From Acidobacteriaceae bacterium (GTDB taxonomy: Bacteria; Acidobacteriota; Terriglobia; Terriglobales; Acidobacteriaceae), in NCBI GenBank assembly GCA_003142935.1, contig PLOG01000141.1:1-32247 (forward strand): DNA of 32,247 nucleotides, read 5' to 3'. Below the pieces are notes generated by a model. It was not told the origin of the DNA. It worked only from the letters and a program-made list of their open reading frames with translations, and made no database searches. This document shows, in pieces, positions 18,505 through 21,476 of the stretch. Every line of letters starts with the position of its first letter. Position 1 is the first letter of the stretch. Both the position numbers and the translations under genes were made by a program.

Positions 18505-19824
18505 ATGAGTTCTAAACCACCCGTCCCCACCCGCACCCGTTCCCAGGCCCTCCAGCTCAGCGCCGAGCGCTTCTTTCCTGGTGGCGTCAACTCTCCGGTG
18601 CGAGCCTTTCGCGCGGTTGGTGGCGCACCGCCATTCATCCAGTCCGCCGCGGGCGCATACCTCACCGACGCCGACGGCAACCGCTACATCGACTACTTCG
18701 GCTCCTGGGGCCCCATGATCCTCGGCCACGCCCTTCCGCCTGTCGTCGAAGCCATTCAGCGCGCCGCAGCCAACTCCGCCAGCTTCGGCGCCTCCACCGC
18801 CGCCGAGGTCGACCTCGCCGAACGCATTGTCGCCTGCTATCCAGCCATTGAGAAAATGCGATTCGTCAGCTCCGGCACCGAAGCCACCATGTCGGCCATT
18901 CGCCTGGCTCGCGCGGCCACTAGACGCAAGATCATCATCAAATTCGAAGGCTGCTATCACGGCCATGCCGACGGCCTGCTGGTTAAAGCCGGTTCCGGCC
19001 TCGCCACCTTCGGCATTCCCGGCTCGGCCGGCGTCCCTGAAGAGGTCGCGGGCCTTACGCACGCCCTGCCCTACAACGACATTGCCGCTATCGAAGCCGC
19101 ATTTGATGCTCATCCCGACGTCATCGCCGCCGTCATCATCGAGCCCATCGTCGGCAACGCCGGCTGCATCCCCCCGGCTCCCGGCTACCTCGCCGCCCTC
19201 CGTGCCCTCACCCGCCGCGAAGGCGCCCTGCTTATTGTCGATGAAGTCATGACTGGCTTCCGCGTCGCTCTCGGCGGCGCCTGCCAGCTATATGAAATCG
19301 ACCCCGACCTCATCACCCTCGGCAAAATCGTCGGCGGAGGCCTCCCCGTCGGCGTCTTCGGCGGCAAGCGAAAATACATGGACCAGCTCGCCCCTCTCGG
19401 CCCCGTCTACCAGGCTGGAACCCTCAGCGGCAATCCCCTGGCCATGGCCGCCGGCATCGCCACCATCTCCTACCTGCAAGCCCACGCCGAGGAAATCTAT
19501 CCCCAGCTCGAAGCCACCTCGAAAGCCGTTTTCGAAGGCGTAGCCGCGGAAGCCGTTGCCGCCGGCGTCCCTCTCACCACCAACCGCGTAGGCTCCATGG
19601 GTACCTGGTTCTTCACGCCCGATCCAGTCACCAACTACGAAGAAGCCGCGAAATCTGACACCGCCGCCTTCGGCCGCTTCCATCGCGCCATGCTGGATCA
19701 AGGCATCTGGCTCCCGCCCTCTCAGTTCGAAGCCGCCTTCCTAAGCACCGCCCATGGAAAAGAGGAAATCGCAGCCACCATCGCCGCCGCAAGCCAAGCC
19801 TTCAAATTTGTACAAGGCGAATAA
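18505..19824 (+). CDS. hemL: Glutamate-1-semialdehyde 2,1-aminomutase
   Basis: A PLP enzyme that converts glutamate-1-semialdehyde to 5-aminolevulinate, the first dedicated tetrapyrrole precursor in the C5 pathway. The 439-residue protein carries '[13 protein letters not shown]' (23-35), the PLP-phosphate segment '[15 protein letters not shown]' (122-136), 'DEVMTGFR' (246-253) and the Schiff-base lysine K274 in '[13 protein letters not shown]'. Length agrees with the family (about 430). ATG at 18505 is preferred over an in-frame start 22 codons upstream because the family N-terminus begins here. It stands alone; other hem genes are not in the window. Confidence 0.97.
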
Positions 19825-20193
19825 ACGCACCTTCCAATCGCATCAGCCCCGTGCCGCCTCCCCGCTGTCATCTTGAGCGGAGCGTAGCGAGGTCGACAGA
19901 TCCGCGGTTGTTCTTGAGAAAGCATTACTGGCAAGTAGCTGACGAGTTGCCGACTAACCGACCGGAAATGCAAGAACCGATCACTGCGAGTGGATTTGGC
20001 GCCCATTCAATCGCAGGACATAAACTTGCGGTTATTGCTGCATCAAGAGCAGAACTGACCAGCACTAAGGCAGCCTAAATGGGAAACTGAAGAATCAGCT
20101 TGCCTTTGGAAGGCGCGCGGAAGTGCACTCCATGTCTCATGCGAGCGCGGCAAGCGGCGTTCAAGGTTCAACAGAATCGAAGAGGAGAACCAA
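19825..20193. other. Gene-free interval between hemL and the collagen-like lipoprotein gene
   Basis: 369 bases with no convincing gene. It holds the intergenic repeat at 19865-19906, and the ribosome site of the next gene lies near its end (20182-20187). No clear terminator follows hemL. Confidence 0.6.
19865..19906. repeat. Dispersed intergenic repeat element (ERS-type)
   Basis: The stretch reading 'tgtcatcttgagcggagcg' and onward to 'gtcgacagatccgcgg' matches a short palindromic sequence I know as frequent between genes in Acidobacteria and some other phyla, often mistranslated as 'HPERSE...'. It is bounded by CTGTC (19865-19869) and GACAG (19895-19899) as an inverted pair. Only one copy is in this window, so repetitiveness is from prior knowledge. 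Confidence 0.5.
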
Positions 20194-20568
20194 TTGAAAA
20201 TATCACTGTGTACTGGTATCGGTTTAATCTCGGTCATGTTGCTATGCGGTTGCCAGACAACGCCACCGCAAGCAGCGCCCGCAGCACCGGCAGCACCGGC
20301 AGCGCAGGCACAGCCTGGACAGCCTGGGCCGCCCGGACAAAATGGCGCGCAAGGGCAGCCCGGAGAGCAGGGACAAACGGGGGATGCAGGCCAGCCTGGT
20401 GACCGGGGGCACACAGGCGACACCGGACGACCGGGCGACAAGGGTTATACCGGAGATACGGGACAGAAGGGCGACACCGGCGATCGCGGCAAGCCCGCTC
20501 CATGCCCCGATGGACAGCATCGCTATACCGATCCTGAAAACGGAAGGGTAAGATGCGTGCAGAACTAA
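20194..20568 (+). CDS. Collagen-like triple-helix repeat lipoprotein
   Basis: A 124-residue exported protein. A signal peptide ends in the lipobox 'LLCGC' (lipidated C20). An Ala/Pro linker (22-41) is followed by 20 uninterrupted collagen-type G-x-y triplets (42-101), rich in GDT, GQP and GDK. A short C-terminal cap has two cysteines (C104, C121) that could form a disulfide. The start is TTG at 20194, fixed by a strong GAGGAG site 7 bases upstream (20182-20187). No ATG gives a complete signal peptide. It is single, with no obvious operon partners. Collagen-like bacterial proteins form trimeric stalks at the cell surface; a role here is an inference. Confidence 0.8.
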   Translation: MKISLCTGIGLISVMLLCGCQTTPPQAAPAAPAAPAAQAQPGQPGPPGQNGAQGQPGEQGQTGDAGQPGDRGHTGDTGRPGDKGYTGDTGQKGDTGDRGKPAPCPDGQHRYTDPENGRVRCVQN

Positions 20569-20600
20569 GCAGTAAAACAGCAAGGTAATCACGTGGGGGG

Positions 20601-20631
20601 GGGGCGCAGAACAGTGCAGTTCTGCGCTCCC
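20601..20631 (+). terminator. Strong hairpin, possible terminator after the collagen-like gene
   Basis: GCGCAGAAC (20604-20612) pairs perfectly with GTTCTGCGC (20619-20627) around a 6-base loop, and adjacent GGG/CCC can extend the stem. There is no T-run, so it may be a processing signal or a bidirectional terminator. It directly abuts a run of ten G (20595-20604). Confidence 0.5.
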
Positions 20632-20735
20632 GAGGGAAGAAACGGCAGATAACCGTCAAACAGGAAGTAACCCCATTTTCTGCCTTGCCGGGCGCCTCAA
20701 TCTTCCGCGCCTTTTACGGAAGGGTGGAATAGCAG

Positions 20736-21476
20736 CTAAACACCCCACGCATCCACCCGCACAAACCGATGCGTCTCCTTATACAGCGCAACAAGCAACC
20801 CCGAAGCCTTCACTGAAGCCTCTCGATCAGCTTCTTGCTCCAGATGTCCCCCATCATGCAGCACAATATTCGCCGCCCGCCCGCGCCGTCCCAGCCGGTC
20901 AATCTTCGCCGCCAACTGCTGCACAATCCGATCGGCCGATGTCTCGCTCCAATCCGAAGTCATCGCATTCCAGGTCACCACCCTCAACCCCAGCGACCGT
21001 GCAATCCGAAACACAGCAGGCCGCCGCGCCCCGAATGGCGGTCGAAAATAGCGGATCCGTTCCCCCGCGATCTGCTCCAGCGCATGACTGGTCCGCGCCA
21101 GTTCCTCGCGCACCCTCGCCGCCCTGGAGAGCGCCAGGTTCGGATGGCTCCACGAGTGATTCCCGATCAGGTGACCCTCCGCCGCAATCCGCCGCACCAA
21201 CTCCGGCTCCGCCTGCGCGCGGCTCCCCAGCAGGAAGAACGTCGCTTTCACTCCGTGTTCTCCCAGAACGTCGAGCAGCCGCGGCGTCCACTTCGGATTG
21301 GGTCCGTCGTCGAAGGTCAATGCCAGTTCTCCTGCCCGCTCCGGCGCAATCAGTACCGACCCAAAAATCCCCGACCCCGGCCACATCGCCGCATACGCAT
21401 AGCCGCCCGCCGCCAGCCCCAAAGCCCCGGCCGCGCCCAGCCCCGCATAAATCTCTGTTCCTAATGCCGAAAGCAT
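20736..21476 (-). CDS. NodB-domain polysaccharide deacetylase, membrane-anchored
   Basis: A 246-residue carbohydrate esterase family 4 enzyme that removes N-acetyl or O-acetyl groups from envelope polysaccharides. A hydrophobic Ala/Gly-rich N-terminus (about 9-31) is an anchor or signal. The NodB motifs are complete: 'TFDDGP' (54-59, catalytic D56 and metal D57), 'HSWSH' (H107 and H111), 'RPPFG' (145-149) and 'VLHDGG' with H207. All metal-binding residues are retained, so it should be active. It is divergent from panB with a 125-base gap and convergent with the collagen-like gene. The exact polymer is unknown; peptidoglycan or poly-N-acetylglucosamine are the usual substrates. Confidence 0.92.
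   Translation of the reverse strand: MLSALGTEIYAGLGAAGALGLAAGGYAYAAMWPGSGIFGSVLIAPERAGELALTFDDGPNPKWTPRLLDVLGEHGVKATFFLLGSRAQAEPELVRRIAAEGHLIGNHSWSHPNLALSRAARVREELARTSHALEQIAGERIRYFRPPFGARRPAVFRIARSLGLRVVTWNAMTSDWSETSADRIVQQLAAKIDRLGRRGRAANIVLHDGGHLEQEADREASVKASGLLVALYKETHRFVRVDAWGV

What the first reader, a model, noticed from the sequence alone, without database searches (positions are those of the whole stretch)
20194..20568. Collagen-like lipoprotein with TTG start and 20 perfect G-x-y triplets
A lipobox, a Pro/Ala linker, 60 residues of uninterrupted collagen repeat with charged GDK/GDT triplets and a two-cysteine cap are packed in 124 residues. Surface collagen stalks are known mainly from Gram-positive pathogens and phages; a small lipidated one beside a polysaccharide deacetylase is unusual. 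DNA repeats in it could drive length variation.
Basis: partly seen in the sequence, partly recalled or inferred. Interest (0 to 1): 0.5.

Follow-up and report, generated by a model that had tools for sequence, protein, structure and literature searches.

The report
Wandering gene for collagen-like lipoprotein
A small collagen-like protein, probably lipid-anchored on soil bacteria, is real, and its gene turns up little changed at at least four unrelated chromosome positions in different peatland Acidobacteria, as if it travels alone between them without any visible transport machinery.

Summary
Window 20194-20568 encodes a 124-residue protein (TTG start) with a lipoprotein-type signal peptide, Ala/Pro linker, exactly 20 Gly-X-Y triplets and a 23-residue two-cysteine cap. 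The deacetylase is not a conserved partner. Homologues (59-93% identity) occur in 7 of 80 genomes of the genus (own included) and in two genomes of other genera of the family. Eight loci fall into five chromosomal neighbourhoods, one seen from one side only. At four sites the flanking genes lie together without the gene in other genomes; at engB a 769-bp insert lies between 90%-identical flanks. Cassette DNA is far less diverged than host genes: four-fold sites 1-20% against 20-55% in hemL, lower in 21 of 21 pairs. Triplet number runs from 20 to 28. No transposase, phage or plasmid carrier was found in the searches made. Best reading: a laterally spreading single-gene cassette for an outer-membrane collagen-like lipoprotein; mechanism and function are inferred. 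Cassette divergence tracks host divergence (r = 0.77) and three carriers share the lon-engB neighbourhood, so vertical descent with relocation remains a serious rival.

The parts
20194..20568 (+). CDS of the collagen-like lipoprotein, 124 aa, TTG start, stop included
20194..20253 (+). signal peptide with lipobox-like L-C-G-C; Cys20 would carry the lipid
   Evidence: sequence; this Cys is kept in all 9 members compared; lipobox rule recalled, no predictor run
20254..20316 (+). Ala/Pro/Gln linker, residues 21-41
   Evidence: sequence
20317..20496 (+). 20 uninterrupted Gly-X-Y triplets, residues 42-101
20497..20565 (+). C-terminal cap, residues 102-124, two cysteines, predicted beta-hairpin (strands 108-112 and 119-123)
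20152..20193 (+). leader with ribosome-binding region, nearly identical in all eight aligned loci
   Evidence: the exact 34-base core is found in the window, G017 and G011 copies only, the other five differ at a few bases
19947..20151 (+). 5' module shared with G017 (231 of 247 positions over 19947-20193), which has it at another chromosomal site; five other carriers have a different 5' module
20600..20631 (+). 13-bp perfect hairpin after the gene; a like hairpin in 5 of the 7 loci with 3' sequence; no T tract
20569..20651 (+). 3' noncoding part of the cassette, shared with G017 (72 of 80 positions)
19857..19916 (.). dispersed short repeat left of the cassette (matches in G010, G016, G017)
18508..19824 (+). 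hemL-like class-III aminotransferase, left neighbour at this site only
20736..21476 (-). polysaccharide deacetylase, convergent right neighbour at this site only

Best explanation
A single-gene cassette of about 0.5-0.77 kb (leader, gene, 3' hairpin) encodes an exported lipoprotein. After signal cleavage, Cys20 is lipidated and, in these diderm bacteria, most likely sorted to the outer membrane (inferred; Gln follows the Cys). A flexible Ala/Pro linker, then a triple-helical Gly-X-Y rod formed by three chains (inferred), then a small beta-hairpin cap closed by Cys104-Cys121 (hairpin predicted, disulphide inferred) make a short trimeric stalk with three lipid anchors; at about 0.29 nm per residue (recalled) 20 triplets give about 17 nm. 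The most likely role is an accessory surface spacer or adhesive tip for cell-cell, matrix or phage contact, with rod length tuned by tandem duplication (function inferred). The gene is accessory and laterally spread: gained at different intergenic spots in different species and lost again. Sequence shows the patchy presence, different sites, empty sites and low divergence; transfer is inferred from them. How it moves is not shown: uptake of DNA with recombination in repeat-rich intergenic DNA, or mobilisation in trans by a recombinase, are the candidates.
For: Collagen match and conserved architecture; lipobox Cys in all 9 members and two cap Cys in the 8 with a complete C-terminus. Present in 7 of 80 genus genomes, own included, and 8 of 397 sampled order genomes, two of these outside the genus. 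Neighbourhoods differ: hemL/deacetylase (window), uvrD-recA/PIN side (G017), lon-engB (G004 and bog_321 just after engB; G011 beside lon), ABC transporter/radical SAM (palsa_128; G010 right flank), recombinase fragment (palsa_343, one side). Empty sites: hemL-deacetylase 77 bp apart in G011 and 51 bp in G018 against 917 bp in the window; after engB in G010, G011 and G017; PIN-uvrD in the window's own genome, 87 bp between aligned blocks; ABC-radical SAM in G004 and G017. Divergence: cassette four-fold sites 0.01-0.20 against hemL 0.20-0.55, lower in 21 of 21 pairs; 5' noncoding 93.5% and 3' noncoding 90% identical between window and G017 although the sites differ. Length 20-28 triplets. Cap modelled as a hairpin with pLDDT about 83.
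Against: Cassette divergence correlates with hemL divergence across the 7 genus carriers (Mantel r = 0.77, 6 of 5040 permutations as high). On the hemL tree carriers are somewhat clustered (5 changes; 15 of 500 shuffles as low) and well-supported branches do not rule out one origin. G004, bog_321 and G011 share the lon-engB neighbourhood. All this suits vertical descent with relocation. No transposase, terminal inverted repeats or clear target duplication was found; a truncated recombinase lies beside one copy. No carrier in the phage, plasmid and viral collections, though the exact pattern fits only three of eight known copies. The rod is modelled with pLDDT under 50 (single chain). Seven of nine members have Cys, not the usual Leu, at the -3 position of the lipobox. 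No expression, triple-helix or surface data. The seven named carriers are MAGs; the palsa_343 copy is cut by a contig end and its bin was not checked.
Confidence: 0.55

Rival explanations
1. Vertical descent with relocation: the gene was inherited within the genus, perhaps from the lon-engB neighbourhood, lost in most species, moved within chromosomes by rearrangement, and its DNA evolves slowly for reasons unrelated to transfer.
For: Cassette divergence follows hemL divergence (r = 0.77; ratio of four-fold divergence 0.04-0.36). G004 and bog_321 share the spot after engB, G011 has it beside lon, and lon and engB lie 0.2-0.6 kb apart in G001, G012 and G018. palsa_128 and G010 share the radical-SAM flank. 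One origin is not ruled out by the hemL tree.
Against: Needs unusual constraint on synonymous sites as well as on 5' and 3' noncoding DNA. The copy in another genus (palsa_343) is as close to G004 (1 of 49 four-fold sites differ) as copies inside one clade (bin not checked). In the G004 assembly the hemL, uvrD, ABC and engB sites lie on four different contigs.
Confidence: 0.3
2. Non-autonomous mobile element: the unit is excised and inserted by a recombinase acting in trans (tyrosine recombinase or REP-type transposase), with the gene as cargo. This is one mechanism for the best explanation, so the odds overlap.
For: A 769-bp insert between 90% identical flanks at engB. Integrase fragment about 240 bp upstream of the palsa_343 5' module. 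Dispersed repeats around several copies.
Against: One copy per genome in the 7 genus carriers; ends differ between copies; no convincing terminal repeats; TAGAAG/TAGCAA at the engB edges is too weak to call a target duplication.
Confidence: 0.25
3. Phage-derived lysogenic-conversion gene (moron) or remnant of a phage collagen fibre.
For: The protein matches PHROG tail-fibre families; a solitary gene with its own leader and 3' hairpin.
Against: All 22 PHROG matches overlap the Gly-X-Y region and none covers signal peptide plus cap. No prophage genes recognised by eye in the ORF lists beside the copies, apart from the integrase fragment of palsa_343. No hit for the protein in 50,697 phage records; no exact leader match in the viral contigs (that exact pattern fits three of eight known copies).
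Confidence: 0.08
4. Neighbourhood function: partner of the polysaccharide deacetylase.
For: Adjacent in the window.
Against: Convergent strands; other carriers have other neighbours; hemL-deacetylase pairs without the gene are common.
Confidence: 0.02

Closest known systems
Burkholderia collagen-like proteins Bucl8 and Bucl3 (PMC4565658, passages read)
   Same: Gram-negative; Bucl8 predicted, Bucl3 presumed, to be a lipoprotein; Gly-X-Y number varies between strains
   Different: Larger, with efflux or talin-like domains; Bucl3 has 38-63 triplets, mostly GTS, Bucl8 only GAS; no report in the passages read of one gene at several sites
Legionella Lcl adhesin (PMC6617341, passages read)
   Same: Gram-negative surface collagen-like protein; [quoted passage not shown]
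   Different: 431-position model, NCBIfam match 23.3 bits against a cut-off of 500; type II secretion substrate
Streptococcal Scl1/Scl2
   Same: Gly-X-Y rod on the cell surface (NCBIfam names; rest recalled)
   Different: LPXTG-anchored; 36.8 and 35.1 bits against cut-offs of 400 and 325; Gram-positive
Prophage collagen fibres of E. coli (PMC3368898, passages read)
   Same: Gly-X-Y repeats on mobile DNA
   Different: Phage-fibre domains PfN/PfC, carried by prophages
Minimal mobile elements of Neisseria (concept recalled; PMC3898611 seen only as a search listing)
   Same: Small gene units exchanged without mobility genes, probably by DNA uptake
   Different: There different genes alternate at one site; here one gene is found at several sites

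Membership tests
Pfam Collagen (PF01391) | score above gathering cut-off, uninterrupted Gly-X-Y | tested here: met
   42.6 against 27.2 bits, 20 triplets
Pfam Collagen (PF01391) | forms a triple helix | not testable with these tools
   only single-chain modelling; rod pLDDT under 50
bacterial lipoprotein | short signal peptide ending in a lipobox with invariant Cys | tested here: inconclusive
   Cys in all 9 members; L at -3 in the window, I in G370, C in the other seven; no predictor available, motif recalled
Scl1/Scl2 LPXTG adhesins | NCBIfam cut-off | tested here: not met
   36.8 and 35.1 bits against 400 and 325
Legionella Lcl | NCBIfam cut-off | tested here: not met
   23.3 against 500 bits
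phage collagen tail fibre | match beyond the collagen repeat, phage neighbourhood | tested here: not met
   22 PHROG matches at E up to 0.01, all overlapping the repeat; no phage hit; neighbours read by eye only
insertion sequence or MITE | terminal inverted repeats, target duplication, several copies per genome | tested here: not met
   one copy in each of the 7 genus carriers; no clear end repeats at the one site with close flanks
integron gene cassette | attC site and integron integrase | not tested
   3' hairpin present, by eye unlike the recalled attC core; no attC model or genome-wide integrase search was run; truncated tyrosine recombinase beside one copy
minimal mobile element | gene exchange at one fixed site between conserved flanks | tested here: not met
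   sites differ; definition recalled

The most novel reading that the evidence does not exclude
A self-contained, transposase-free single-gene unit that hops between unrelated chromosome positions and between species and genera of Acidobacteriaceae, carrying a length-variable lipid-anchored collagen-like stalk, mobilised in trans by a recombinase not yet identified; the surface stalk would be the adaptive or selfish reason for its spread.
Probability: 0.28. Interest if true: 0.68.

Novelty: new variant of a known kind. Interest (0 to 1): 0.5.

Why it matters
It would show a surface collagen-like protein in peatland Acidobacteria as a travelling accessory trait rather than a fixed part of the envelope. 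Because the same unit of roughly 0.5-0.8 kb sits at different places in close relatives, with the empty sites known, it offers a clean system for finding how single genes move in soil genomes without visible mobility genes. The compact 23-residue cap on a natural 20-28-triplet rod could also be a minimal trimer-capping module for collagen engineering.

Tried and rejected
Phage or plasmid origin: protein search of phages and plasmids, none; DNA search of phages (15 records, pieces covering at most 9% of the query) and plasmids (one record, 8%); viral contigs by protein profile (five loci, all long generic Gly-X-Y proteins by their frames) and by an exact 34-base leader pattern (none; the pattern itself fits only three of eight known copies).

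Structured RNA in or around the copies: Rfam at E up to 1 on five loci gave two matches far below their gathering scores. The 3' hairpin is strong but has no T tract, and the terminator scan of 19830-20740 found none. The only promoter-like match there lies inside the gene.

Transposon ends: engB insert edges compared with the empty site; possible duplication TAGAAG/TAGCAA judged too weak. Radical-SAM and PIN-uvrD sites: edges not sharp enough.

Is the 43-bp match right of the cassette (20648-20690) another cassette end? No collagen-like frame among the frames of 110 or more codons at the matching place in contig C164; rejected.

Cap in the PDB: two hits with E 0.99 and 2.1, chance. The profile search of the PDB found collagens, one fibril protein and a BclA chain, best stretches in the repeat. 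No fold search was run because only the short cap is modelled confidently.

Transfer that scrambles all relationships: not supported, since cassette and hemL distances correlate. The hemL tree is poorly resolved (14 of 58 inner branches well supported), so I do not count events from it. Of 65 genus genomes with a hemL match, 61 were read (62 loci, two from G065); one row under 380 residues was left out of the tree.

Mended on checking: I had counted G011's place beside lon as a sixth, unrelated context. Searches show lon and engB next to each other in several genomes, so I now count five neighbourhoods, and I lowered the best explanation from 0.6 to 0.55, raised the vertical rival from 0.25 to 0.3 and lowered the novel case from 0.3 to 0.28.

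Full report
What is there. The frame 20194-20568 is real and as described: TTG start, lipobox-like Cys20, Ala/Pro/Gln linker, 20 uninterrupted Gly-X-Y triplets (residues 42-101) and a 23-residue cap with two cysteines. The next longest G-x-y run in the window is 4, and the longest in 40 shuffles 6. Pfam Collagen is well above its cut-off (42.6 against 27.2 bits). The start codon is supported by G017, where TTG follows directly after an in-frame stop, and by ATG at the same place in six of the other seven aligned homologues.

Who else has it. In the window's genus 7 of 80 genomes hold a match at E <= 1e-8 (own, G004, G010, G011, G017, G049, G056). In an even draw of 397 genomes of the order, 8 do at E <= 1e-10, two of them in other genera of the same family: G397 and G370. 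The seven named records kept are MAGs of Acidobacteriaceae or Acidobacterium with fen, bog or palsa in their isolate names; two further hits of that call (L059, L060) are long generic collagen proteins and were dropped. G370 is the most distant member (59% identity) and keeps the lipobox Cys, 21 triplets and the cap; in it only three cysteines remain, the lipobox and cap ones.

Length variation. Triplet counts are 20 (window), 20 (G017), 22 (G010), 27 (G004), 28 (G011), 28 (G056), 21 (G049), at least 20 (palsa_343, cut by the contig end) and 21 (G370). G004, G011 and G056 carry an extra 54 bp (18 residues, six triplets) that repeats the neighbouring unit. Four signal peptides carry an extra 18-bp unit as well.

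Where it sits. Neighbours: hemL and deacetylase (window); a UvrD-like helicase and recA on one side and a PIN-domain and LOG-like gene on the other (G017); just after engB (G004 and bog_321); beside lon, with only about 1 kb of sequence to the contig end on the other side (G011); ABC transporter and radical-SAM gene (palsa_128; G010 shares the right flank only, its left side being the contig end); a truncated tyrosine recombinase (palsa_343, one side). Gene names other than hemL, deacetylase and the recombinase are my reading of the translations. lon and engB lie 0.2-0.6 kb apart in G001, G012 and G018 and several kb apart in G004 and G010, and G011's engB stands at the end of another contig, so G011's copy probably lies in the same neighbourhood as those of G004 and bog_321, on the other side of engB. 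I therefore count five neighbourhoods among eight loci, four of them with an empty counterpart. In the G004 assembly the hemL, uvrD, ABC and engB sites lie on four different contigs.

Empty sites. At the hemL-deacetylase site G011 and G018 have 77 and 51 bp where the window has 917 bp. Among 62 hemL stretches from the genus 41 have the deacetylase in the fetched stretch, all 41 convergent, 23 of them less than 200 bp away; the cassette is in the window's stretch alone. In the 12 larger gaps looked at, other frames lie between the two genes and none resembles the cassette, so the spot is variable. After engB, G004 has a 769-bp insert between flanks 90% identical to G010, which lacks it there and has its copy at the radical-SAM gene; G011 and G017 lack it there too (124 and 32 bp between aligned blocks). 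At PIN-uvrD the window's own genome has the flanks (68-81% identical) without the cassette. At ABC-radical SAM, G004 and G017 have the flanks about 88 bp apart without it. The neighbours stay together and the cassette is the part that comes and goes. For each single pair insertion and deletion are not distinguished; bog_321 is also filled at engB, so loss in G010 is possible.

How diverged it is. Across 21 pairs of genus carriers the cassette's synonymous distance is 0.04-0.24 and hemL's 0.33-1.27. At four-fold sites it is 0.01-0.20 against 0.20-0.55 in hemL (21 pairs), 0.16-0.47 in engB (10 pairs) and 0.21-0.54 in the ABC transporter (10 pairs). Restricted to glycine codons the cassette is still below hemL in all 21 pairs. 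Noncoding parts are equally close: 231 of 247 (5') and 72 of 80 (3') positions between window and G017, which have it at different sites; the other 5' module is 91-94% identical among G004, G010, G011 and palsa_343. Against this, cassette and hemL distances correlate (r = 0.77, 6 of 5040 permutations as high). On the hemL tree the label needs 5 changes, 15 of 500 shuffles are as low, and well-supported branches force only one, so a single origin with losses is not excluded. dN/dS of 0.25-1.3, palsa_343 included, suggests weak constraint on the protein.

Unit structure. A leader of about 42 bases before the start is nearly identical in all eight. Upstream there are two unrelated modules: one in the window and G017, another in G004, G010, G011 and palsa_343, with a shortened form in bog_321; palsa_128 has Ns there. 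Downstream a hairpin is kept in five of seven loci with 3' sequence (z -2.3 to -4.3); G011 lacks it (z 0.2) and G010 has another sequence with an assembly gap, not folded. Dispersed short repeats lie around several copies (the last two listings were capped).

Mechanism, shown and inferred. Shown by sequence: architecture, patchy presence, different sites, low divergence. Predicted: beta-hairpin cap (residues 101-124 at pLDDT about 83). Inferred: lipidation, outer-membrane location, trimer, disulphide, surface role, lateral transfer. The mobilising step is open; recombination of taken-up DNA in repeat-rich intergenic DNA and a recombinase in trans are both possible.

Known or new. Collagen-like proteins of bacteria, predicted lipidated ones and repeat-number variation are known (PMC4565658 and PMC6617341, passages read). 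A solitary collagen-like gene at changing chromosomal sites was not seen in the paper searches made (listings, with passages read in five papers); that library is partial and the listings were short. I file the protein as a new member of the bacterial collagen-like proteins and the whole as a new variant, because of its site-changing single-gene cassette.

Noticed in passing
window 20595-20604: A run of ten G at the foot of the 3' hairpin where relatives have five or six; slippage or a sequencing error.
   Followed up: no
L054 4819-5565 (-): Tyrosine recombinase frame that seems to lack its C-terminal part (PHROG integrase match), about 240 bp upstream of the conserved 5' module in palsa_343.
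   Followed up: partly
L028 11276-11998: G011 holds a second, unrelated collagen-repeat protein (frame cut by the contig end) with a possible IPT/TIG-like N-terminal part by eye.
   Followed up: no
L053 1-540 and 1558-1911; L056 5808-5870 and 6787-6858: Dispersed short intergenic repeats, many matches across the ten genus genomes searched, near the cassette.
   Followed up: partly
hemL-deacetylase spacer, 12 genomes of the genus: The spacer holds different frames in different species (membrane-protein-like and acyltransferase-like by eye), so it may be an integration spot.
   Followed up: partly
L056 6410-6426: In palsa_128 a one-base difference near the stop codon adds two residues (NQ).
   Followed up: no
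L090 6701-7063 (-): The most distant member (G370, another genus) has a repeat dominated by GQT triplets, and lies beside a frame of 315 codons; its flanks were not compared with other genomes.
   Followed up: no
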